From Sulfuritalea sp. (GTDB lineage: Bacteria > Pseudomonadota > Gammaproteobacteria > Burkholderiales > Rhodocyclaceae), in assembly GCA_023700805.1 (NCBI GenBank), contig JAMPYF010000011.1, forward strand, positions 1-64,000: 64,000 bases of DNA, in the 5' to 3' direction. Below are positions 9,591 to 61,100 of this stretch, piece after piece. The position numbers and the translations under genes were made by a program. Numbering within the stretch: position 1 is the first letter of the stretch; every line of letters starts with the position of its first letter. The notes beneath the pieces are model-generated. The model was not told where the DNA came from. It was given only the letters and a program-made list of their open reading frames with translations, and made no database searches.

Positions 9591-11199
9591 GCTCGATACA
9601 CATACTGGCTATCGACTGGCCGAACTCCGGATGCCAGGTGGCGACTATGACACGAGCGGCACCACCGGTCGCGCACCAGCGGATTATATGTCCATCGGGT
9701 AGAGTCAGCAGCCCGCCGTCGCCTGCGCTGGAAGCCGTGACGGCCGGATGCAGGTAGAAGCGCGCCACCGCTTCGCCAAAACCGCCTTCGACCGTATCGG
9801 TAACGCGCAAACCCTGCTCCGTCATGCGCCAGTTGCGGCGGTGCAGGGGCCGCCCCGGCAGACGACAATAGCCATCATGCGCACAAGTCAGCTCCACGGC
9901 ATCGGCGTCCTCGCTCGCGGCGAAGCCCACGGGCCGCGCCCGGCGCGCCACGCGAAAGCCGCTCCAGACCTCGCTCGAATCGGCGCCATCGATCTGCACC
10001 GTACTGTGCGCTGCGGTGCCGCGCTGGCGCAGACGCTCGGCACCGAGCCCGTACTCCGACGTCCCCGAATTCACTACTACCCGCTGCCCGAAAACAGACA
10101 GCTCGAAGGACAGCGTATCGGCATGGGCGTGGCCGGGCAGATAGTCGGGACCGATTTCGCCGACATCCGCTATCAGGACGGCATCATTTCTCCGCACCCG
10201 TACGTAGCCACTCTGCAGGGCCGACTTCAGTCCGCCAGCAACCATCCCCAACTCATCAGCGTAAGCGCCCAGGTCCGCCAGCTTCGGCGCAATCCCAAAC
10301 GCTGCATCGTTGAAAAATGCAATCCCGCCGTCCGGATGGGTCATCGCCGCCAGCCAGTCCAGCATGCGCAGCGCGAGCCGGCGCCAGTCGGTCACCGCTG
10401 CGGGGTCCATCGTGCCCGGCCAGCGCCGTGCAAGCTGGATCAAGTCCAGCAGATCCTCAAGAATGATCGCGTGATACATCGGGCTGCGCTCGAAATGCCC
10501 GCCGTCCTCCAGTATCTGTTCGGCATGCTCGCGGCGCAGAATGGCGAGCCCCTTCTCCCGCCAGACATCAGCCTCCGGCCCGGAAAAGAACGTCCCGGCA
10601 AAGACCAGCGCCTTGGCGTTCGCCAGCAAATGGTTTCCCAGCAGATGCCACTCCAGCCGTCCCATCAGCCAGCGCGCCTGCACCGCCAGACTTTGGACCA
10701 CACCCGCCTCTGGCGCATTGCCCGCGGCAAGCCACTTGATCCAGTTCACCAGCCGCAGCGACAGCGGATAAGGCTCCCAGCCGTTGCCGACCGCAGGTGG
10801 GTTCTCGGCGATCCAGCGTGCCATCAGGGCGCGGTGCCACTCCAGCCGTGCCGCCGCATCGTCGGCGTTCAGGTCATCGAAATAATGCAGGTTGTAGAGC
10901 CAGAGCTTGGGCCAATCCGACCGATTCCAGTCGGCAGCCGAAGTCAATGTCCGCGTCACCGACAAAAAGTGAAAGCGCGCCGGCCCGGTCATCGATACCA
11001 CCCGACCGCAACGTGCCCACTGTCCGGTCGCTGGCCGCACTTCCGGCGGCGGCCGCAGATCTGGCGCCGGGCGACGCAGGCGAAACCACAGCCGACCGTA
11101 AATCTGGACTGGCCGCAGATAGCGGATAGTGTGCCAGTAGCGGAAGACCGTTCCGAGAAAATTGCGACCCGCAGGAAATGGCCGGCAAGTCATGGCCAA
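9544..11199 (-). CDS. Heparinase II/III-family protein
   Basis: WLYNLHYFDDLNA..., NDAAFGIAP, YLPGHAHADTLSFELSVFGQRVVVNSGTSEYG typical of EPS-locus heparinase-like proteins. Confidence 0.85.
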   Translation of the reverse strand: MAMTCRPFPAGRNFLGTVFRYWHTIRYLRPVQIYGRLWFRLRRPAPDLRPPPEVRPATGQWARCGRVVSMTGPARFHFLSVTRTLTSAADWNRSDWPKLWLYNLHYFDDLNADDAAARLEWHRALMARWIAENPPAVGNGWEPYPLSLRLVNWIKWLAAGNAPEAGVVQSLAVQARWLMGRLEWHLLGNHLLANAKALVFAGTFFSGPEADVWREKGLAILRREHAEQILEDGGHFERSPMYHAIILEDLLDLIQLARRWPGTMDPAAVTDWRRLALRMLDWLAAMTHPDGGIAFFNDAAFGIAPKLADLGAYADELGMVAGGLKSALQSGYVRVRRNDAVLIADVGEIGPDYLPGHAHADTLSFELSVFGQRVVVNSGTSEYGLGAERLRQRGTAAHSTVQIDGADSSEVWSGFRVARRARPVGFAASEDADAVELTCAHDGYCRLPGRPLHRRNWRMTEQGLRVTDTVEGGFGEAVARFYLHPAVTASSAGDGGLLTLPDGHIIRWCATGGAARVIVATWHPEFGQSIASMCIELVFKGPQAAMEFSWA

Positions 11200-35984: not shown

Positions 35985-36710
35985 TCAGCGCCGCACCCGG
36001 TTCCACACCATCGCCACGCCGTCCAGCAGCAGGTCGCCGATGTCGGCATTCAGGGCGCTGCCGCGTTCGCGCCGCTGCCGGCTGCGCTCGCGTTCGCTGA
36101 ACAGGATCGCCTCGGCCAGCAGCGCCGGGGCGGGCGGTGCGGCCTGTTTCAGCGCAAGCTGCTGATAGCCGGCCAGCGCCTGTTCGACCGCCTGCGGGTC
36201 GAGGATCGCGATCGGCGCGCGGCAGTGGCCGCAGGCGTTTTCCTTGCGGATATCCACCGCCGCGCCGCAACCGGTGCAGCGCACCACGCCGATGCGGGCG
36301 CCGATTTCCTTGATCTCGGCGCCGCTCAACTGGCGCACGAAACCTTTCTCGATCATGAACTGGCCAAAGCTGATGAAGCGGCCGTGCTGGCCGCAGCGCA
36401 GGTAATTGAACAGGCCGCTCTTGACCCGGTCCTGGGAATGGATCAGGCGCTCGTTGCAGCGCGGGCAGCGCAAGGGATTCGCCAGCGGCAGGCGCTGGTC
36501 GTCGCGGTGCTGGTGGATCAGCCGGAACAGTTCGACGACGCCGGCGGGCGCGAGCTGCAGGCTCTCGTAGTCGTCGAACCAGATGCCCTGGCAGGCAAAG
36601 CAGAGGTCGAGCTCGACGTCGCCGCCAAGCTTGCGCGGGAAGCGCTGCGCGCTCATCGGCGCCCGGCAGGAAGGGCAGGCGCCGGGGACGGTCGACGGCA
36701 TTGCGTTCAT
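35985..36710 (-). CDS. TFIIB-type zinc-ribbon protein
   Basis: CPSCRAPMSAQRFPRKLGGDVELDLCFACQGIWFDDYE plus further CxxC pairs. Confidence 0.8.
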   Translation of the reverse strand: MNAMPSTVPGACPSCRAPMSAQRFPRKLGGDVELDLCFACQGIWFDDYESLQLAPAGVVELFRLIHQHRDDQRLPLANPLRCPRCNERLIHSQDRVKSGLFNYLRCGQHGRFISFGQFMIEKGFVRQLSGAEIKEIGARIGVVRCTGCGAAVDIRKENACGHCRAPIAILDPQAVEQALAGYQQLALKQAAPPAPALLAEAILFSERERSRQRRERGSALNADIGDLLLDGVAMVWNRVRR

Positions 36711-36774
36711 CGAGGCATGGTCCGCGACAGCTGCGTCGCGCGCGCCGGGTCGAGCCTGCGCTGCATGGGCGCAG

Positions 36775-37386
36775 TCAGTACCCGCTTCTGCCGCTGTCCT
36801 TGCCGCCGCCGGCAGGGAAGGCGAGGGGACGGATGACGCCGCAGGCCACGCGCTTGCCCGAATTGCCGGCCGGCTGCGACTGGTAGTCGTCGGGATCGGC
36901 ATGGACCACCACGCTGCGCTGGAAAATGCCGCCCGGTCCCTGGGTCAGCGACAGCATATCCACCTCGACGGAAAGCGCCGCCTTGCCCGCGCTGTCGGCC
37001 ACCAGATTGGGCATGTCACCGGCATGGCGGTCACTGCCGCCGTGATGGCCGTGCGGCCTGCCGGCGGGGTTGAAATGGCCCTTGGCGCTGCTGGCATCGG
37101 GCGCGCTGCAATCGCCGGCCTCGTGCACATGGAAGCCGTGCTGGCCCGGCGTCAGGCCGGCCACGCGGGCCTCGACGCGCAGTTTCTGGCCGACCGTCTG
37201 GAAGTCGACCGTGCCGCTGACGCTGCTGCCGGAGCGCGCTTCGAGCGTCGCGCTGGCCCTGGGCCCGGCCGCTTCCATGCCGGCGCAGGCGGCGAGCAGG
37301 CTGCCCGCCGCAGCGAGGACGGCGATGCGCGCGGTCGGGTAGATGGTGGTGTGAATGCGCTGCTGAAGACTGCGTTGCGTTGTCAT
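36775..37386 (-). CDS. sodC: Cu-Zn superoxide dismutase (lipoprotein-type signal)
   Basis: GQHGFHVHEAGDCSAPDASSAKGHFNP...VVVHADPDDYQSQPAGNSGKRVACGVI. Confidence 0.93.
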   Translation of the reverse strand: MTTQRSLQQRIHTTIYPTARIAVLAAAGSLLAACAGMEAAGPRASATLEARSGSSVSGTVDFQTVGQKLRVEARVAGLTPGQHGFHVHEAGDCSAPDASSAKGHFNPAGRPHGHHGGSDRHAGDMPNLVADSAGKAALSVEVDMLSLTQGPGGIFQRSVVVHADPDDYQSQPAGNSGKRVACGVIRPLAFPAGGGKDSGRSGY

Positions 37387-37407: not shown

Positions 37408-37502
37408 TGGCGGAAGGAAGCGGGAGTCGAACCCACGCGGGACCGCATGGCGACCCTTCCGCTTTTGAAGACCAGCCGCCCCATCGGGGAAGCTTCCCTT
37501 CC
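37408..37502 (-). tRNA. selC: Second tRNA-Sec (TCA anticodon), diverged copy
   Basis: GGAAGGGAAGCTTCCCCGATGGGGCGGCTGGTCTTCAAAAGCGGAAGGGTCGCCATGCGGTCCCGCGTGGGTTCGACTCCCGCTTCCTTCCGCCA; 8-bp acceptor, long variable arm. Confidence 0.85.
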
Positions 37503-37725
37503 GATGATGTTATGGGTTTGATCATGCGTGGCTCGCACCGCTGCTGCGCAATATGTGCCCGTCACGCACGCGACGAGTTTAGCCGATAAGCATGCCGGCC
37601 GTGCGTCGCGCTGCGGTCCGCCCCGGCGGACGGCGCTTGACCGGAATCATTCCGCTTTTGCCGAATACGTGCGAAGCTTCCGTTCGCGCTTTGCGTGACG
37701 CCAAGGCGGATCAGGGAGATGAAAA

Positions 37726-38466
37726 ATGAACACACGCGACCCGGCGCCGCAGTCGCCGTGGCAGAGAATGCTGGGCATCGAATTCAGCCCGGTCAGCCAT
37801 CGTGAACGGTTGGTATCGGCGCTCGGCGGCTTCGTCGCGCTGGTCGCGGTCTATGCCCTGAGCCGCACCATGCTCGAAGGCATCGCCGCGCCGATCCTGG
37901 TGCTGTCGATCGCCTCCTCGGCCGTGCTGCTGTTTGCGGTGCCGCACGGCGCCCTGTCGCAACCCTGGCCGGTGCTGGGCGGCCACCTGGTGTCGGCCGC
38001 GATCGGCGTCGCCTGCGCGCGCCATGTGCCCGACCCGCTGCTGGCGGCAAGCCTCGCCACCGGCCTGGCGATCGGCGCGATGCACTACCTGCGCTGCATC
38101 CATCCGCCGGCCGCGGCCACGGCGCTGGCCGCGGTACTGGGCAGCGAGCAGGTGCGCGCCCTCGGCTACGGCTTCCTGGTGACGCCGGTGCTGATCAATG
38201 TGCTGATCATCCTGGCCGTTGCCGTGGCCTTCAATGCCGTGTTTCCCTGGCGTCGCTACCCGGCCTTCCTGGCCCGCCGGAGCGTCCTGGCGGCTCCCGC
38301 GACAGCCGGCTACGAGGCGATTTCGCACGAAGACTTCGTCTTCGCCCTGACGCAGATGGATTCCTTCATCGACGTGTCCGAGGAGGACCTGCTGCGCATC
38401 TACAGCCTTGCCACCGGTCGCCACCGCGAGATGGCGGCGCAAGCCGCCTGCGGGCAGCCGTCCTGA
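37726..38466 (+). CDS. HPP-family membrane protein
   Basis: SVLLFAVPHGALSQPWPVLGGHLVSAAIGVA...RCIHPPAAATALAAVLG. Confidence 0.85.
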   Translation: MNTRDPAPQSPWQRMLGIEFSPVSHRERLVSALGGFVALVAVYALSRTMLEGIAAPILVLSIASSAVLLFAVPHGALSQPWPVLGGHLVSAAIGVACARHVPDPLLAASLATGLAIGAMHYLRCIHPPAAATALAAVLGSEQVRALGYGFLVTPVLINVLIILAVAVAFNAVFPWRRYPAFLARRSVLAAPATAGYEAISHEDFVFALTQMDSFIDVSEEDLLRIYSLATGRHREMAAQAACGQPS

Positions 38467-45193: not shown

Positions 45194-46301
45194 CTATGTG
45201 GCGAGGCGAACCACAAATCGCCGGACTTTCCTATCAGATGAAATGGGGCCGCCTCCGTCCAACCATGCCTGGGGAAGTTGCAACAGGCGGGGCATTTCAC
45301 TCTCCGCCCCCTCGTCCCTTGCCCGCTTCGCAATGTTCTCCAGCGCATGCAAATCCTCCGCATCCGCCGCCAGCGCCTCGCTCTCGCGGCGGTGGGCATC
45401 GAATGCCTCGAAACGCTCCTGGGCGATGGCCTTCGCCTGATCGGCACCGATGCTGCCAGCGTTCCGCAGAACCGGGCGCTCGTTGAAATCGAGCAGGCGG
45501 TCAACGTTCTGCCGCCAGTAGTCCAGCGTCAGATGCTGACGGTCCTTGGCGCGTGGTTCGGCCTGCTCGAGGAGGATGACCACCAGCCGATTGAGGGTGT
45601 CCACCTCGCCGGCGGAGAGGTAGTTCTTGGCGACGACGACGTCATGCTTGCGCACACCAGACCCGCTCCAGGTGGTGAGCGCCATGTTGGGCCGGGTCGG
45701 CGCGGGAGACGACGATTTCGGCGGCGGTCATCTGCGTCACGGCGTAAAGCAGCTTGTTCTGCACTTCGGCAAAGAAAAGCTGGGCTCCGCTGTCGTCGGC
45801 CCGGTAGTCGCTGGAAAGGGCGAAGAGATCGCGCACCTTCTGGTAGAAGCGCTTCTCGGACGCGCGTATCTCGCGAATGCGGGCCAGTAGTTCGTCGAAG
45901 TAGCCCCACCCGCCCGGGTCTTTCAGGCGCTCGTCATCCATGACGAAGCCCTTGATCAGGTATTCGCCGAGGTGCGCGGTCGCCCACTGGCGAAACTCGG
46001 TGCCGCGCGGTGAGCGCACGCGATAGCCGATGGCCAAGATCATGGACAGGTTGTAGGTCAGGGTGCGGCGTTTGACCGGGCGCCCGCCCTCGGTCTGAAC
46101 TGTCAGGGATTCCTTGACAGTTGCCCCGGAGGTCAGCTCGCCTTTCTGGAGGATATTCTTTGCGTGAAGGCTGACGTTCTGCTTGGTGGTTGCAAACAGC
46201 TCGGCGATCTCGACCTGCGAGAGCCAAACGCTGCCATCCTCGGCGCGAAGTTTGACTTCCGTCTGGCCGTCATCGGTCTGGTAAAGGATCAATTCACTCA
46301 T
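45194..46301 (-). pseudogene. RhuM-family protein, frameshifted near 45685
   Basis: MSELILYQTDDGQTEVKLRAEDGSVWLSQVEIAELFATTKQNVSLH... (45642-46301) continues in another frame as MALTTWSGSGVRKHDVVVAKNYLSAGEVDTLNRLV... (45194-45685). Confidence 0.85.
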
Positions 46302-46668: not shown

Positions 46669-47262
46669 TCATTGCCGCCGGTCTTCGGCCTGGAGGGCCA
46701 GCAGCTCTTCCGCGCTGTTGATATTGCCAAAGGCCTCGGCTTCGTCATCGAAGACTACCTCGGCGACTTTCAGGGAGGCGTGCCAGAGGCCGACCTTGCG
46801 CCCGCCGGCTGCCAGAAAGGCGTCGAGTTGCGGCAGCAGGTCGCGCCGCACCAGGCAGAACGCGCGATGCACCCGCTCGCCGGTGCGGGCGACGGCAAGT
46901 TGCGCCTGGTCGGCGCTCAGCGCGGCATGCAAGCGCGCGACCAGGTCCGCCGGCAGAAACGGCGAGTCGCAGGGCGCCGTCACCAGCAGCGGCGTCGTGG
47001 CTTGCGCCAGTGCCGCCTGCAGCCCGGCGAGCGGACCGGCGAAGCCGGCAATCCGGTCGGGCAGCACCGGACAGCCGAATTCCGCATAGCGGCCGAGGTT
47101 CTGGTTGGCGCTGATCAGCACGCTGCGCACTTGCGGTGCCAGGCGCTCCAGCACCCACAGCGCCATGGGCCGCCCCCGCAGCTCCTGCAGGCCCTTGTCG
47201 ATGCCGCCCATGCGCCGCCCCTGGCCGCCTGCAAGGATCACGCCGGTGACATGTTCGATCAT
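46669..47262 (-). CDS. mobA: Molybdenum cofactor guanylyltransferase
   Basis: VTGVILAGGQGRRMGGIDKGLQELRGRPMALWVLERL. Confidence 0.92.
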   Translation of the reverse strand: MIEHVTGVILAGGQGRRMGGIDKGLQELRGRPMALWVLERLAPQVRSVLISANQNLGRYAEFGCPVLPDRIAGFAGPLAGLQAALAQATTPLLVTAPCDSPFLPADLVARLHAALSADQAQLAVARTGERVHRAFCLVRRDLLPQLDAFLAAGGRKVGLWHASLKVAEVVFDDEAEAFGNINSAEELLALQAEDRRQ

Positions 47263-47525
47263 CGCCGCACCAGGTTCCCAGCCATGGACACGCCGTCCAG
47301 CAGCAGGTCGCCGATGTCGGCATTCAGGGCGTTGCCGCGTTCGCGCCGCTGCCGGCTGCGCTCGCGTTCGCTGAACAGGATCGCCCCGGCCAGCAGCGCC
47401 GGGGCGGGCGGTGCGGCCTGTTTCAGCGCAAGCTGCTGATAGCCGGCCAGCGCCTGTTCGACCGCCTGCGGGTCGAGGATCGCGATCGGCGCGCGGCAGG
47501 AGGGGCAGGAGGGTCGGGGGGCCAT
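47259..47525 (-). pseudogene. Truncated duplicate of the zinc-ribbon gene at 35985-36710
   Basis: 211 bp (47289-47499) match 36015-36225 with two mismatches by eye; ORF still open, ATGA overlap with mobA. Confidence 0.75.
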
Positions 47526-49463: not shown

Positions 49464-49850
49464 TCAGTAGACCAGGGTCGCCCATTCCGGATCGAGCGCG
49501 CGATCGACGAAGGCGCTGGCGGCTATCGTGCCGGCATACTCGGGAATCAGGGTCTCGTCCTTGGCGACCAGCGCGCCCATGGCCATGGCGCAGGCGCGAA
49601 AACTGACATCGAGGTTCGCCGCCTGACGCATCATGTGGTAGATCGAGGTTTCGCTCCCCGGCCAGGGTTTCAGGCCATCGGCGACGCCGGCCACCAGCAG
49701 GCGCACGGCGGGGCCGGCGAAGTGAATTTCCACTTCGCAATCGAAGGCTGCCGCCGCGGCGGCGTGTACGAAGGGCGTGGCGCAGAGTTGCGGACGCTCC
49801 GGCGTGGCCGACCAGAGCAGGATGGCGAGCTTGCTGCGCCGGGGGTTCAC
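49464..49850 (-). CDS. DsrE-like small protein (GTG start)
   Basis: KLAILLWSATPERPQLCATPFVHAAAAAAFDCEVEIHFAGPAVRLL...; SD GGAGG before GTG. Confidence 0.72.
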   Translation of the reverse strand: MNPRRSKLAILLWSATPERPQLCATPFVHAAAAAAFDCEVEIHFAGPAVRLLVAGVADGLKPWPGSETSIYHMMRQAANLDVSFRACAMAMGALVAKDETLIPEYAGTIAASAFVDRALDPEWATLVY

Positions 49851-49959
49851 AGGACTACCCTCCCCCCAGCCCCCTGCCCAAGGCAGGGGGTGACGGCAGT
49901 TCGCCGCTGCGCGGCTCCGGGTATTGGATGGCGCCCCTTCGGGCGGCCGTGCGGGGCGC

Positions 49960-50388
49960 TCACAGGAACTCCGCGTCGGGTTCGCTGCGCCGCAGGTGCT
50001 CGCGATAGCTGGCCGCATCGATCAGGCCGGCGCGCTCCGCCTCCCAGGCGGTGGGCCGCCCGCGCACCATCCAGCCGGCCTGATAGGGATCGCGGTTGAT
50101 CATGGCCGGGCGCTCCTCGGCCGCTTCGTTGGCTTCCAGCAGCACCAAGGACAATGGCGCATGCACGGCGAGCACGGTCTTGGCGCATTCCACCGTGCCC
50201 AGGCCGCGGCCCAGCGCCACTTCGGCGCCCTTCGGCTTGGCCGTGAAGCCGATGATCTCGCCCGCGAGAAAGATGCCGAAGGCGCTGGCGCCGATCACCA
50301 CCTCGGCGCCCTCGCGCCTCACCCACATGTCGTACTGCGGATGGTAGAGCAGGCCGTCGGGCACGGCGCCGCGAAAGGTCGGGCTCAT
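49960..50388 (-). CDS. GcvH-like lipoyl-domain protein
   Basis: DMWVRREGAEVVIGASAFGIFLAGEIIGFTAKPKGAEVALGRGLGTVECAKTVLAVHAPLSL. Confidence 0.8.
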   Translation of the reverse strand: MSPTFRGAVPDGLLYHPQYDMWVRREGAEVVIGASAFGIFLAGEIIGFTAKPKGAEVALGRGLGTVECAKTVLAVHAPLSLVLLEANEAAEERPAMINRDPYQAGWMVRGRPTAWEAERAGLIDAASYREHLRRSEPDAEFL

Positions 50389-50393
50389 GACAC

Positions 50394-50489
50394 TGGCGGA
50401 AGAGAGCGGGAGTCGAACCCACCAGGGACCGCATGGCGACCCCTGCCGGTTTTGAAGACCGGCCGCCCCACCGGGGAACGTTCTCTTCC
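50394..50489 (-). tRNA. selC: tRNA-Sec (TCA anticodon)
   Basis: GGAAGAGAACGTTCCCCGGTGGGGCGGCCGGTCTTCAAAACCGGCAGGGGTCGCCATGCGGTCCCTGGTGGGTTCGACTCCCGCTCTCTTCCGCCA. Confidence 0.96.
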
Positions 50490-50500
50490 GTTGTTGAACA

Positions 50501-52435
50501 TCATCGTGACAGCCACTCCGGAGGGGTGTCGCGGCTTCGCAACAGGTGCTCGTCGCGGACGCGGCGAGTGTAGCCGATGCGGTCGAAGAATTCGAGGATG
50601 TGGATCGCCACCTTGCGTCCGCCGCCGATGCGGTCGCGCAGGTCGGCGGCGCGCGCGGCGGCATTTTCGGCGTTGAGCTCGGCGACGATGGCGGCGAGTT
50701 GCGCCACCGCGTCCGCGGTGAAGTAATGGTCATGCGCCACCGGATACAGTTCGCCGGCGCGCGCCACGCGGCGGAACAGCTGGCGCACCACGTCCTCGGC
50801 GGTGCCGGATGCCCTGGCCACATCGCGCACGCGCGGCGGACCGAAGGCTTGCGCGTCGAGCAGCGGCTGCAGCACGGCGAACAGGTCGCGGTCGCCCACG
50901 GCGAGACTGGCCTGGTGTGCCGGCAGGTGCAGCCAGGCGCGGGAGGCACTCAGCCGTCCGGCGGCCAGCAGCTCGGCCACCAGTGCGTCAAAGGCGGCGC
51001 GTTCCAGGGTCGGTAGGGTCAGCCGGCGCAGGCGTTCGCGCTCGACGCCGACCATGTCGGGCGCACGCAGGTGCTCGCTGGCGAGCGCCGCCAGCAGGCG
51101 CTCGCCGAGGGCCTGCCAGCCGGCCGCGGCGAAACCGATCTGTTGCCCGCCGCTCTCCACCACGCGCAATCCGGCAGCCTGCCACAGCGCCGCGGCCGCA
51201 TCCTCGGCCAGGTTCCAGTTGGCGGCGAAGCGGTCGAGATCGACGCCGGCCGCGGCCTGCCCGGCCTGCAGATGCAGGCTCGTCGCCGGATCGTCGTCGC
51301 CCAGCGCGGCGAGCAGCGCCAGCCGGGCCGGGCTGCGCTTGTGGCGCGTGGGCGGAAAGCAGTCGAGCACGCGGCCGCCGGCGATGCTGTGGCGGGCCGA
51401 GGCGTCGCGCAGCACGAAGCGGTCGCCGCGCACCGTGAGGGTCTCGCGGTCGAGCAGGATTTCGGCCAGCGCCGTGGCGCCGGGGGCGATCTGCTCGCCC
51501 TCGAGCAGCGCGACGCGGCCGGTGATGTCGGCGGCGCCGAGATGGACATGCACCGGCGTCCAGTGCTTCAACTCTGCCTGCGACAGCGGAACGCGGATCT
51601 CGGCCTGGAATCGAGTGAGCGGGCGCGCCACCGCGGCATCGACGACCCACATGCCGCGTTCGATGTCCTGCTTGTCGAAATCGCCGGCCAGCGCCAGCGC
51701 GCAGCGCTCGCCGGCCTGGCCGTGGGCGGCCGGGCGGTCCTGCACATGCAGGCTCTTGACGCGCGCCCTGATTCCGCCATGACTGCCGCGTTGCGTGGGG
51801 GCGACGATCACCGTGTCGCCAGCGCCAACTCTTCCCGAGAAGGCGGTGCCGGTAACCACCGTACCGATGCCCGATAGCGTGAAGCAGCGGTCGATCGCCA
51901 GGCGGAAGCGGCCCGTGGCGCGGCGCGCCTGGTGCGCGGCGGCCGCCGCGTCGAGATGGGCGCGCAGCTCGGCCACGCCGGCGCCCGTCGTCGCCGACAG
52001 CGCGAACACCGGGCTGCCCTGCAGGCGCGTGCCGGCCAGCAGGGCGTCGATCTCTGCGCGCGCCGCGGCTATGCGCGCGGCATCGACCGCATCGCACTTG
52101 GTCAGCGCCACCGCGCCGCGATGGAGGCCGAGCAGGTCGAGCAGTTCCAGGTGCTCGCGCGTCTGCGGCATCGGGCCGTCGTCGGCCGCGATCGCCAGCA
52201 GCACGAAGTCGATGCCGGTGGCGCCGGCCAGCATGTTGTGCACCAGCTTCTCGTGGCCGGGCACGTCGATGAAGCCGAGCACCGAACCGTCGGCCTGGGG
52301 GACGTAGGCATAGCCGAGGTCGAGCGTGATGCCGCGCGCCTTCTCCTGCGGCAGGCGATCGGCATCGACGCCGGTGAGCGCCTTCACCAGCGTGGTCTTG
52401 CCGTGGTCGATGTGACCGGCAGTGCCGATGATCAT
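50501..52435 (-). CDS. selB: Selenocysteine-specific elongation factor
   Basis: [44 protein letters not shown]. Confidence 0.96.
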
Positions 52436-53586
52436 GCGGCGCCGATTTCCTTCGAACTCAGCTTGTACACGAAGCTCGCGGGGTCGAGGCTGTCGAGCCG
52501 GCCGGCGTCGTTCTCGGCCTGCGGATACATCAGGAAGGGAATCTTCGCGCCGCGCGAACCCGGCAGCTTGAGATCGTGGGCGAAGTTGTAGGCCAGCCAG
52601 TTCATCTCCCAGGCGCCGAACAGTTTGTGCCGCGCGGCGACCACGACATCGTCCTTCAGCGCAAGGCCGGGCTTTTCCTCCAGCACCACCTTGCGCACGT
52701 CGGCCGGATCGACCGGCACCCAGCCGAAGTTCGCCAGCCAGACCTCCGCCCGGCAGTGTTGCGCGCGGCTGATGTCGCCGCTCTTGCCCAGGCTCTTGTA
52801 GCCGAATTTCGAATCGGCGACGCGCACGCCATACACGTCGCGCGCCGGCAGGCCGATGGCGCGGGCCAGGCCCACGTACAGCGCATTGAGGTCGGCGCAC
52901 TTGCCGGAAAGATTGCCGGTTTCGAGCATGGCGCGGATGTCGCCGGTGCCGCAGCCCCGGGTCTTCGGATTGCGCTCGGTGTTGTCCACCACCCATTCGT
53001 AGATCGCCCGCGCCTGGTCGAGGTCGCTCCGGGCGCCCTTGGTGATTTCCACCGCGGTCTTCCTGACGATGCCGCCGGTCGGCAGCAGTTCGGTGGCGCG
53101 CGTGTAGAGCGCGCGGCTGGCGCGGTCGAGGTCGGCGACCTTGCCCGGCCGGGCCAGATCGATGGCGCGGTCGCGCGTGGCGAAGCGGCTCACCACTTCC
53201 AGCACCGGCGCCGGCTCGCCGGCATCCCACTGCGCGGCCAGCATCTGCGCGCCATAGGCCGGGTCGCGCACTTGCTGCACGGCGGCGGCGTTGCCCTGCC
53301 AGAGGTTGCCCATCGGTTTGATCCAGGCGGCATCGTCGACCGCGGGCAGCGGCAGCCAGGCGCGCGGCGCGCCGCTGGCGGCCGAGAGTTCGAGGCGGCT
53401 GGTGACTTCGAACACACGCCAGCCGTTGGCCGGGTCGGGGTTGAAGCCGCCTGCGGCGGCCGTCGGGCTGAAGCCGCCTGCGGCGTCCGTGGTCTTGACA
53501 CCGCCTTCGGCGGCGAGAGAGAAACGCGGCGCGGACAACGCTGCCGCGGAAAGCGTGGCGGTCTTGATGAAAGTACGACGGTCCAT
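52432..53586 (-). CDS. Transglutaminase-like protein with Tat-type leader
   Basis: MDRRTFIKTATLSAAALSAPRFSLA; RNPKTRGCGTGDIRAMLETGNLSGKCADLNALYVGLARAIGLPARDVYGVRV. Confidence 0.9.
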   Translation of the reverse strand: MDRRTFIKTATLSAAALSAPRFSLAAEGGVKTTDAAGGFSPTAAAGGFNPDPANGWRVFEVTSRLELSAASGAPRAWLPLPAVDDAAWIKPMGNLWQGNAAAVQQVRDPAYGAQMLAAQWDAGEPAPVLEVVSRFATRDRAIDLARPGKVADLDRASRALYTRATELLPTGGIVRKTAVEITKGARSDLDQARAIYEWVVDNTERNPKTRGCGTGDIRAMLETGNLSGKCADLNALYVGLARAIGLPARDVYGVRVADSKFGYKSLGKSGDISRAQHCRAEVWLANFGWVPVDPADVRKVVLEEKPGLALKDDVVVAARHKLFGAWEMNWLAYNFAHDLKLPGSRGAKIPFLMYPQAENDAGRLDSLDPASFVYKLSSKEIGAA

Positions 53587-58127: not shown

Positions 58128-61100
58128 TCACACTTTCTCGATGTTGACCAGGAACGCCTTGTACTCCGGCGTCTGGCAATTGGCGTCGCCGACGAAAGGC
58201 GTCAGCGTGTTGGTGATGAAGCCCGGCTTGGTGACCCCCTTGAAGCCCCAGTGGATCGGAATGCCCACGGTATGCACTTTCTTGCCGTCGACGTCGAGCG
58301 TCTTGATGCGCTTGGTGACCACGGCGACCGCCTTGATGAAGCCGCGGTTGCTGCGCACCTTGACCTTGTCGCCGGTGGCGATGCCCTTCTCCTGCGCCAG
58401 CTGCTCGCTGATCTCGACGAACTGGTCGGGTTGCAGCACGGCGTTGATCCGGGAGTGCTTGGTCCAGAAGTGGAAGTGCTCGACCAGGCGATAGGTGGTG
58501 GCCACGTAGGGGAAGTCCTTGGCCTTGCCGAAGGTTTCCATGTCGCCCTTGAACACCCGCGCCGCCGGATTGCTGGCGGCTTTCGGATTGCCGGGATGGA
58601 AGGGGTTCTTGTCCAGCGGCGTTTCGAAGGGCTCGTAATGCTCGGGGAAGGGACCGTCGGCCATGGCCGGCGCGAACAGCCGCGCCACGCCTTCCGGCGT
58701 CATGATGAAGGGCATCACGTTCTCGTCGGGCGCCGCGTCGGGCCGCATGTCGGGCACGTCGTTGCCGCCCCAGGCCGTGCCGGTCCACTTGATCACGGTG
58801 CGCTTCGGATCCCAGGGCTTGCCGGCCAGATCACACGAGGCGCGGTTGTAGATGATGCGCCGGTTGGCCGGCCAGGAGAAGCCCCAGTTCAGCGTCTGCC
58901 CCAGTCCCGAGGGATCGGAGTTGTCGCGCCGCGCCGTGAGATTGCCCGCCTGCGACCAGCAGCCGCTGTAGATCCAGTTGCCGCAGGAAGTGGAACCGTC
59001 GTCGCGCAGTTGCGCGAAGCCGGCCACCTGGTCGCCCGCCTTGACGATGACCTTGGTCTTGTCCTTCGGATCGAAGACATCGCCCAGCGCCTTGCCGGAG
59101 ATCTCCATGAGGAGTTCCGCCGGCGACGGCTTGGCCGGGATGCGGTAGGGCCAGGTCAGGTTCATGATCGGCTCGGGCAGCTTGCCGCCGTCCTTGGCAT
59201 ACATCGCCTTGAGCTTGAGGAACAGCGCGGCCAGGATCTCGATGTCGCCCTTCGATTCGCCCGGACCGTCGGCGGCCTTCCAGTGCCACTGGATGACGCG
59301 TCCGGAATTGGTGAAGCTGGCGGTCTCCTCGGCGAAGAGGTTGGCCGGCAGGCGGAACACCTCGGTCTGGACCTTGCTCGGATCGACCTCGTTGAACTCG
59401 CCGTGCGGCTTCCAGAACTCCGAGGTGTCGGTGGCCAGCGGATCGATGACGACCAGGAACTTGAGCTTGGCCAGCGCATCGCCCACCTTCTTCTTGTTCG
59501 CCACCGAAGCCAGCGGGTTGAAGCCCTGGCAGAAGAAGCCGTTCATCTTGCCCTGGTGCATGCGCTCGAAGATCGCCAGCACGTCGTAGGCGGCATCCTT
59601 CTTCGGCAGCCAGTCGTAGCCGTAGTCGTTCTTGTCGGTCGCCGCGTTCCCGTACCAGGCCTTCTGCAGGCTGGTAAACCACTTCGGGAAGTTCTGCGGG
59701 AAGTTCATCTGGTTCGGCCGCAGCGCCTTCGGCGTGCGCTTCTCCAGATAGGTCTTGCGATCGACGTCGGCGTCGGTCGGCGCCGACAGGTAGCCGGGCA
59801 GCACTTCCGAGTAGAGGCACATGTCGGTGATGCCCTGCACGTTGGCGTGCCCGCGCAGCGCATTGATGCCGCCGCCGGCCATGCCCATGTTGCCGAGCAG
59901 GAGCTGGATCAGGGCCATGGTGCGGATGTTCTGCGAGCCGACCGAATGCTCGGTCCAGCCCAGCGCATAACAGATCGTCATGGTCTTGTCGGGCGCCGAG
60001 GTCTCGGCCATCATTTCGCAGATCTTGAGGAAGGCGTCCTGCGGCGTGCCGGTGGTCTTGCTCACCAGTTCCGGCGTGTAGCGGCTGTAATGCTTCTTCA
60101 TCAGCTGGAACACGCAGTTCGGGTCCTGCAGCGTCGGATCGACCATGGCAAAGCCGTCCTTGCCCATCTGGTACTTCCAGGTGTCCTTGCCGTAACTGCG
60201 CTTCTCGGCGTTGTAGCCGGAGAAGAGGCCGTCGTCGAACTTGAAGCCTTCGTCGATCAGGAAAGCGGCGTTGGTGTAGTTCTTGACGTACTCGTGATGG
60301 ATCTTGTCCTTCGCCAGCAGGTAGTTGATGACGCCGCCGAGGAAGGCGATGTCGGTACCGGCGCGAATCGGCGCATAGAAATCCGCAACCGCGGCCGAGC
60401 GCGTGAAGCGCGGATCGACCACGATCAACCTGGCCTTGCGGTCCTTCTTCGCTTCGATGACCCATTTGAAACCACAGGGATGCGCTTCGGCGGCATTGCC
60501 GCCCATGACGATCACCAGGTCCGAATTCTTCAGATCGACCCAGTGATTGGTCATTGCACCACGCCCAAATGTCGGACCCAGACTGGATACCGTGGGGGCG
60601 TGTCAAATACGTGCTTGCGTGTCGAGTGCGACGACTCCGAGGTTGCGCAGGATCTTCGAGGTCAGGTAACCGGCTTCGTTGCCGGCGGCCGACGAGGCGA
60701 GGAAACCCGTGGTGTTCCAGCGGTTGACCGTGACGCCGTCGGCGTTCTTCTCGATCAGGTTGGCATCGCGGTCCTTCTTGACGTGGGCCGCGATGCGGTC
60801 GATGGCCTCATCCCAGGAGATGCGCTTCCACTCGCTGCTGCCGGCTTCGCGCACTTCGGGGTACTTGAGCCGGTTCGGGCTCTTGACCATGTCCATCAGA
60901 CCCGCGCCCTTCGGGCACAGCGTGCCGCGATTGACGGGATTGTCCGGATCGCCCTCGATATGGATGATGTCCGCTTTCGCGTTCTTGGACTTGTCGCCCG
61001 TGGTGTAGATCAGGACCCCGCAACTGACCGAGCAGTAGGGGCACATGTTGCGGGTTTCCGTGGCGTGGGCCAGCTTGTAGCTGCGCACCTCCGCCAGGGC

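What the first reader, a model, noticed from the sequence alone, without database searches (positions are those of the whole stretch)
37408..37502. Second tRNA-Sec gene directly upstream of sodC
Seen: besides the expected selC next to selB (50394-50489), another 95-nt tRNA-Sec-like gene keeps the TCA anticodon, identical variable-arm core (GGGTCGCCATGCGGTCCC) and T arm (GTGGGTTCGACTCCCGC), and an 8-bp acceptor with a compensatory change (G6-C versus A6-T). It also has one anticodon-stem mismatch (G30-G40) and a D-loop GG-to-GA change. It lies about 22 nt before the sodC start. Inference: either a divergent second tRNA-Sec isoacceptor or a decaying copy; the compensatory acceptor change argues against simple decay.
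Basis: seen in the sequence. Interest (0 to 1): 0.85.

Follow-up and report, generated by a model that had tools for sequence, protein, structure and literature searches.

The report
Orphaned, decaying original selenocysteine tRNA
The extra selenocysteine-tRNA gene beside sodC is real, but it is most likely the worn-out remnant of this bacterium's original selenocysteine locus, left behind after a second complete copy of the machinery took over nearby; it is a well-resolved example of a known kind of event, not a new kind of tRNA.

Summary
Window 37408-37502 (minus strand) is a tRNA-Sec-like gene (Rfam 53.8 bits; UCA anticodon, G73-CCA), 21 nt before sodC. The reading changes on comparison. 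In most selC-bearing Sulfuritalea relatives selC sits between selB and sodC, so this "second copy" occupies the ancestral locus. Its two closest relatives, G001 and G016, still carry selA-tlpA-transglutaminase-selB-selC-sodC there. Here about 5.1 kb (selA to selB) is missing, leaving a selB stub of about 85 nt plus the tRNA. The intact selA/selB/selC (selC at 50394-50489), beside the selenoprotein formate dehydrogenase, is the incoming version. Its sel genes differ from G001's more than neighbouring genes do (4-fold sites 0.20 versus 0.12, p = 8e-7; control equal), and pairing the two selC copies is rejected (p = 0.017). The orphan has 5 of 33 cloverleaf pairs broken, no fewer than random mutation gives. 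It has lost the conserved D-loop G19, and its cloverleaf lies 21.5 kcal/mol above its best fold (at most 2.5 in 16 intact relatives). A compensatory pair like its one in the acceptor arises by chance in 12% of simulations. Verdict: a decaying relic after replacement of the Sec locus. Duplicated and disrupted bacterial tRNA-Sec genes are already known.

The parts
37408..37502 (-). orphan tRNA-Sec gene (selC2), with encoded CCA
   Evidence: RF01852 53.8 bits; genus model 68.7 bits versus 103-115 in intact genus copies
37503..37587 (-). remnant of the 3' end of the native selB (contains in-frame TAA and TGA)
   Evidence: aligns with G001/G016 selB 3' end, 57-58 of 69 nt identical versus 45 of 69 to the window's own selB
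37588..37700 (.). deletion-junction / HPP upstream region; about 5.1 kb (selA-tlpA-transglutaminase-selB) present here in G001/G016 is absent
   Evidence: BLAST: window 37587 joins G001 position 10936, window 37700 joins 16042; alignment
36775..37386 (-). sodC, Cu/Zn superoxide dismutase, intact
   Evidence: PF00080 E 2e-43; 91% nt identity to G001/G016
35985..36902 (-). zinc-ribbon protein gene of the native locus; its 3' 241 bp are repeated at 47259-47499
37726..38466 (+). HPP-family membrane protein gene flanking the native locus
   Evidence: PF04982; flanks selA in G001/G016
50394..50489 (-). intact selC (selC1), linked to selB
   Evidence: RF01852 71.4 bits; identical to selC of five other genus members
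50501..52432 (-). selB, the only one in the genome
   Evidence: TIGR00475 461 bits; one match in G000
52432..53586 (-). transglutaminase-like protein gene between tlpA and selB
   Evidence: PF01841
53604..54134 (-). TlpA-like thioredoxin gene
   Evidence: PF08534/PF00578
54131..55561 (-). selA
   Evidence: TIGR00474 578 bits
55613..61190 (-). formate dehydrogenase-N operon fdhG(UGA)-fdhB-fdhI-fdhE, the selenoprotein substrate (B and I subunits named from position and sequence, not searched)
   Evidence: TIGR01553 on both halves of FdhG; TIGR01562 for FdhE; UGA in frame
60550..60608 (-). SECIS_3 element in fdhG
   Evidence: RF01989 77.5 bits
49966..50388 (-). GcvH-like gene downstream of selC1 in place of sodC
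   Evidence: PF01597; gene order as in G007
46669..47499 (-). mobA-like gene plus truncated zinc-ribbon gene 3' end; far end of the second sel locus
   Evidence: 96.3% identity of 47259-47499 to 35985-36225; mobA 88% nt to G023

Best explanation
The sodC-linked element is the genome's original selC gene, now a relic. Ancestrally the genus carried selA-tlpA-transglutaminase-selB-selC-sodC at this place. A second, diverged version of the sel locus (mobA...gcvH-selC1-selB-transglutaminase-tlpA-selA beside the formate dehydrogenase selenoprotein operon) came to lie about 13 kb away. The likely route is recombination with a related Rhodocyclaceae lineage; the alternative is a duplication older than the split from G001/G016. 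Once redundant, the native selA-selB stretch was removed by a deletion of about 5.1 kb, leaving about 85 nt of selB, selC2 and the intact sodC. selC2 may still be transcribed as part of the sodC leader, but it has since accumulated substitutions without visible structural constraint and is predicted not to fold into a usable tRNA-Sec. Sec insertion into FdhG is therefore served by selC1. Shown here: synteny, stub, decay pattern, fold prediction, rejection of selC1-selC2 sisterhood. Inferred: order of events, foreign origin of the second locus, loss of function.
For: Genus synteny selB-selC-sodC with a matching spacer. G001/G016 hold the intact locus; colinear BLAST breaks at selB. The stub matches native-type selB, not the window's selB, whose C-terminus ([12 protein letters not shown] versus ...HAWLN) is unlike the other Sulfuritalea selB tails compared and closer to Sulfurisoma; c1 with Sulfurisoma has support 99/96, and c1+c2 as sisters is rejected, p 0.017. 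Sel genes in the window are more diverged from G001/G016 at 4-fold sites than native neighbours: 0.200 versus 0.120 (p 8e-7) and 0.182 versus 0.105 (p 2e-6), with no difference for G001-G016 (p 0.50). SelA is 83-85% identical to G001/G016 but 88-89% to several other species. Decay: 5 of 33 pairs broken, P(<=5 | random) 0.74; cloverleaf 21.5 kcal/mol above MFE versus -1.2 to 2.5 in 16 intact sequences; genus covariance score 68.7, below tRNA-Sec of other families of the order (78-86); c2 end branch 0.62 versus median 0.037.
Against: No expression data. The element still passes Rfam and ARAGORN, keeps UCA, G73-CCA, the 8-bp acceptor and the T arm, and has one truly compensatory pair. The rate excess over its G001/G016 ortholog (10 versus 3 changes) is not significant alone (p 0.09). 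selB and transglutaminase trees place the window's genes beside G001/G016, selB only at 86/83, so a foreign donor is not proven. One MAG, 89% complete; G001 is 83% and G016 90% complete. Fold energies ignore tRNA modifications.
Confidence: 0.8

Rival explanations
1. selC2 is a functional second tRNA-Sec, transcribed with sodC (for example under oxidative conditions), adding Sec-tRNA capacity.
For: Identity elements kept: UCA, G73-CCA, 8+5 acceptor/T arm, variable-arm core; one compensatory acceptor pair. The anticodon arm is reported not to be contacted by the Sec enzymes (PMC7609411). G001/G016 apparently manage with one of the same D-stem mismatches in their only detected selC.
Against: Broken pairs equal to random expectation; no anticodon stem in the predicted ensemble; G19A absent from the other Sec tRNAs compared here; covariance score below other families. 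Only one SECIS was detected in the genome with the one family searched, so no obvious demand.
Confidence: 0.1
2. The window's second locus arose by tandem duplication of the native locus within the lineage, with reciprocal losses, rather than by recombination with another lineage. (This is a variant of the best explanation: selC2 would still be a relic.)
For: Order FecR-zf36-sodC-selC2-HPP...trx | mobA-zf36'-...-selC1-selB-...-selA-fdh fits a direct duplication; repeats are in direct orientation. selB and transglutaminase trees put G000 with G001/G016.
Against: Sel-block 4-fold divergence exceeds that of neighbours, which speaks against a duplication after the split; it would have to pre-date the split, with G001/G016 losing the whole second copy. 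gcvH and mobA orthologs and the SECIS_3 element are not found in G001/G016.
Confidence: 0.25
3. selC2 is retained not as a tRNA but as a tRNA-like 5' leader of sodC (RNase P/CCA-end processing site or structured leader).
For: It lies 21 nt upstream of intact sodC, and close selC-sodC spacing is common in the genus; acceptor and T arm are the best-kept parts.
Against: Proximity is ancestral; several relatives lack sodC next to selC; no test of leader function was possible.
Confidence: 0.06

Closest known systems
Additional tRNA-Sec gene copies in bacterial genomes (Santesmasses et al. 2017, PMC5330540, Table 3)
   Same: A second G73 tRNA-Sec beside the functional one, with a compensatory difference in a stem.
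   Different: The copies counted there as likely functional lack structure-breaking mutations; this one has several, and has an identifiable ancestral locus with a deleted selB.
[quoted passage not shown] human tRNA-Sec2)
   Same: Extra copy with mutations that disrupt pairing, outside the working sel locus.
   Different: Not a dispersed copy: it is the native locus, orphaned by deletion of selA-selB, with G73 retained.
selC*-tRNA-Cys and allo-tRNAs (reviewed in PMC7609411)
   Same: tRNA-Sec-like bodies that can have UCA anticodons.
   Different: Those carry U73 or an A51a bulge, or 8/4 and 9/3 acceptor branches; here G73 and an 8/5 branch are kept and no second selB accompanies it.

Membership tests
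bacterial tRNA-Sec (RF01852) | covariance-model score above gathering cut-off | tested here: met
   53.8 versus 47 bits
bacterial tRNA-Sec (RF01852) | 8-bp acceptor, 5-bp T stem, G73, CCA, UCA anticodon | tested here: met
   all present, one G.U in the acceptor
bacterial tRNA-Sec (RF01852) | intact 6-bp D and anticodon stems, variable arm, D-loop GG | tested here: not met
   5 of 33 pairs broken (one shared with G001/G016), G19A
bacterial tRNA-Sec (RF01852) | cloverleaf at or near the minimum-energy fold | tested here: not met
   21.5 kcal/mol above MFE; intact relatives at most 2.5
bacterial tRNA-Sec (RF01852) | serylated, converted by SelA, bound by SelB | not testable with these tools
   needs aminoacylation or complementation assays
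functional second tRNA-Sec (PMC5330540 criteria) | differences from the top copy do not disrupt pairing | tested here: not met
   several disruptive differences
orphaned/decaying tRNA-Sec gene | orthologous intact locus in close relatives and loss of flanking sel genes | tested here: met
   G001/G016 intact; selA-selB missing here
orphaned/decaying tRNA-Sec gene | no structural constraint on substitutions | tested here: met
   broken pairs match random expectation, P(<=5) 0.74; small numbers, so weak constraint is not excluded
selC* tRNA-Cys / allo-tRNA | U73 or A51a bulge, or 8/4 or 9/3 acceptor branch, or companion selB*/cysS* | tested here: not met
   G73, 8/5 branch; single selB in genome; cysS* was not searched for

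The most novel reading that the evidence does not exclude
selC2, freed from its own selB, is still transcribed in the sodC leader and retained for another role: a tRNA-like processing or regulatory element for sodC, or a weak seryl-tRNA UGA reader outside the SelB/SECIS system.
Probability: 0.06. Interest if true: 0.7.

Novelty: new member of a known kind. Interest (0 to 1): 0.35.

Why it matters
It corrects the reading of a 'second tRNA-Sec': a high-scoring extra copy can be the original locus left over after a replacement of the selenocysteine machinery. It gives a traceable case of a complete Sec-decoding locus being displaced within a genus, with the abandoned tRNA caught part-way through decay, and a caution that one compensatory pair is weak evidence of function.

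Tried and rejected
Rejected: that selC2 was copied from selC1, or the reverse (sisterhood rejected; flanks belong to different selB lineages). Rejected: a phage or integrative-element attachment duplicate as the cause; both copies are full length with selB tails, the region is colinear with relatives, and no integrase was noticed in the ORFs read (no dedicated integrase search was run). Rejected: that other RF01852 hits in the genome are Sec tRNAs (47 bits or less, not called Sec by ARAGORN). No sigma-70 promoter match upstream of either selC, uninformative. The rate test against the G001/G016 ortholog was not significant. No paper was found that treats selenocysteine in Sulfuritalea.

Full report
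What was checked. The element at 37408-37502 is on the minus strand and reads GGAAGGGAAGCTTCCCCGATGGGGCGGCTGGTCTTCAAAAGCGGAAGGGTCGCCATGCGGTCCCGCGTGGGTTCGACTCCCGCTTCCTTCCGCCA. ARAGORN and Rfam both call it tRNA-Sec (53.8 bits); the selB-linked copy scores 71.4. The whole assembly contains these two Sec tRNAs and one selB.

Which copy is the original. The genome belongs to Sulfuritalea (Rhodocyclaceae), judging from the titles of matching records. In most selC-bearing members of the genus selC follows selB and precedes sodC, with a short spacer such as CCCAACGCGAGGAG(N)ATG; a few lack sodC there. The window's sodC-linked element has that same spacer, and upstream of it about 85 nt of selB 3' end with stop codons in frame. 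The stub is 57-58/69 identical to G001, G016 and G023 selB ends but 45/69 to the window's own selB. The two nearest relatives (G001, contig JACPUD010000007; G016, contig JAUYSD010000353; 91-96% nt in most neighbouring genes, 89% for HPP) are colinear with the window over FecR-zf36-sodC-selC and over HPP-ntrC-cox-fnt-trx. Between them they carry selB-transglutaminase-tlpA-selA, which in the window is missing at this point (window 37587 joins G001 position 10936; 37700 joins 16042). So the sodC-linked gene is the orthologous, native selC, with its partner genes deleted.

Where the working copy came from. The working selC lies in a second locus, mobA - truncated zinc-ribbon gene - ogt - EamA - dsrE - gcvH - selC1 - selB - transglutaminase - tlpA - selA - fdhE - fdhI - fdhB - fdhG(UGA/SECIS), whose sel-side order matches relatives such as G007. 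Its selA/tlpA/transglutaminase/selB genes differ from G001 and G016 at 20.0% and 18.2% of 4-fold sites, against 12.0% and 10.5% for native neighbours (p = 8e-7, 2e-6). Between G001 and G016 the same gene sets are equal, 7.3% versus 8.1%. SelA is closer in amino-acid identity to several other species (88-89%) than to G001/G016 (83-85%). The extreme C-terminus of selB and the selB-selC1 junction group with Sulfurisoma (99/96), and selC1 and selC2 with their flanks are not sisters (AU p 0.017). These facts speak against a duplication after the split from G001/G016. They favour recombination with another lineage, though an older duplication remains possible because selB and transglutaminase trees still place the window near G001/G016.

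State of the orphan. Relative to the inferred ancestor with G001/G016, selC2 has nine substitutions and one deletion; the G001/G016 gene has three substitutions. Five of 33 cloverleaf pairs are broken, one of them shared with G001/G016. Twenty thousand random mutants of the ancestor give a mean of 4.6 broken pairs, P(<=5) = 0.74, and a compensated pair in 12%. Among 16 distinct intact sequences the cloverleaf is within -1.2 to 2.5 kcal/mol of the minimum-energy fold; in selC2 it is 21.5 above, with no probability on the anticodon stem. The other Sec tRNAs compared keep G19 in the D loop; selC2 has A. A covariance model built from 14 relatives without selC2 gives 103-115 bits to intact selC of the genus (and of Sulfurisoma), 78-86 to tRNA-Sec from other families of the order, and 68.7 to selC2. 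The one lower score is the foreign second selC of G017 (63.7). On the tree of selC plus flank selC2 has the longest end branch (0.62, median 0.037). The excess of changes over the G001/G016 ortholog alone is not significant (p 0.09).

Interpretation. The most likely history is: native selA-selB-selC-sodC; gain of a second complete sel locus beside the formate dehydrogenase operon; deletion of the redundant native selA-selB; unconstrained drift of the stranded tRNA. The order of these steps is inferred. Whether the element is still transcribed ahead of sodC cannot be decided from sequence.

Comparison with what is known. Extra bacterial tRNA-Sec genes with compensatory changes (eight bacterial genomes) and many extra predictions with disruptive changes were described by Santesmasses et al. 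(PMC5330540). A survey here of 400 genomes of the order found 107 with a tRNA-Sec at E<=2e-10, of which three had two (that strict setting did not pick up selC2 itself). In the genus, of 25 genomes with selC, three have two: this one, G017 (foreign second selB-selC) and G026 (10% contamination, so probably mixed). This case is a well-resolved member of a known kind.

Noticed in passing
G017:C7:120872-122895 (L038 4861-6899): A relative carries a second, foreign selB (37% identity) plus a divergent tRNA-Sec, in addition to its native selB-selC.
   Followed up: partly
window 49847-49963: A roughly 115-bp dispersed repeat inside the second sel locus, with many copies at 75-94% identity across this genome and relatives.
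   Followed up: no
window 47259-47499 and 35985-36225: A 241-bp direct repeat (3' end of a zinc-ribbon gene), 96% identical, much more alike than the two selC regions; suggests recent gene conversion or exchange between the two loci.
   Followed up: partly
G001 and G016 (L226, L227): Both keep selA-selB-selC, but no SECIS_3 element was found and a different gene set lies beside the regulator that flanks fdhG in the window; their selenoproteins, if any, are unidentified.
   Followed up: partly
window 45642-46301: RhuM-like fragment (judged by eye; no NCBIfam match) between the native region and the second sel locus, near the probable insertion point.
   Followed up: no
L038 near 6900 and L037 upstream of selC (1501): The same short sequence (GCTCCGAACGAGTTGTTTCACG) lies beside selC in two relatives, on opposite sides and in opposite orientations; possibly a mobile-element end.
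   Followed up: no
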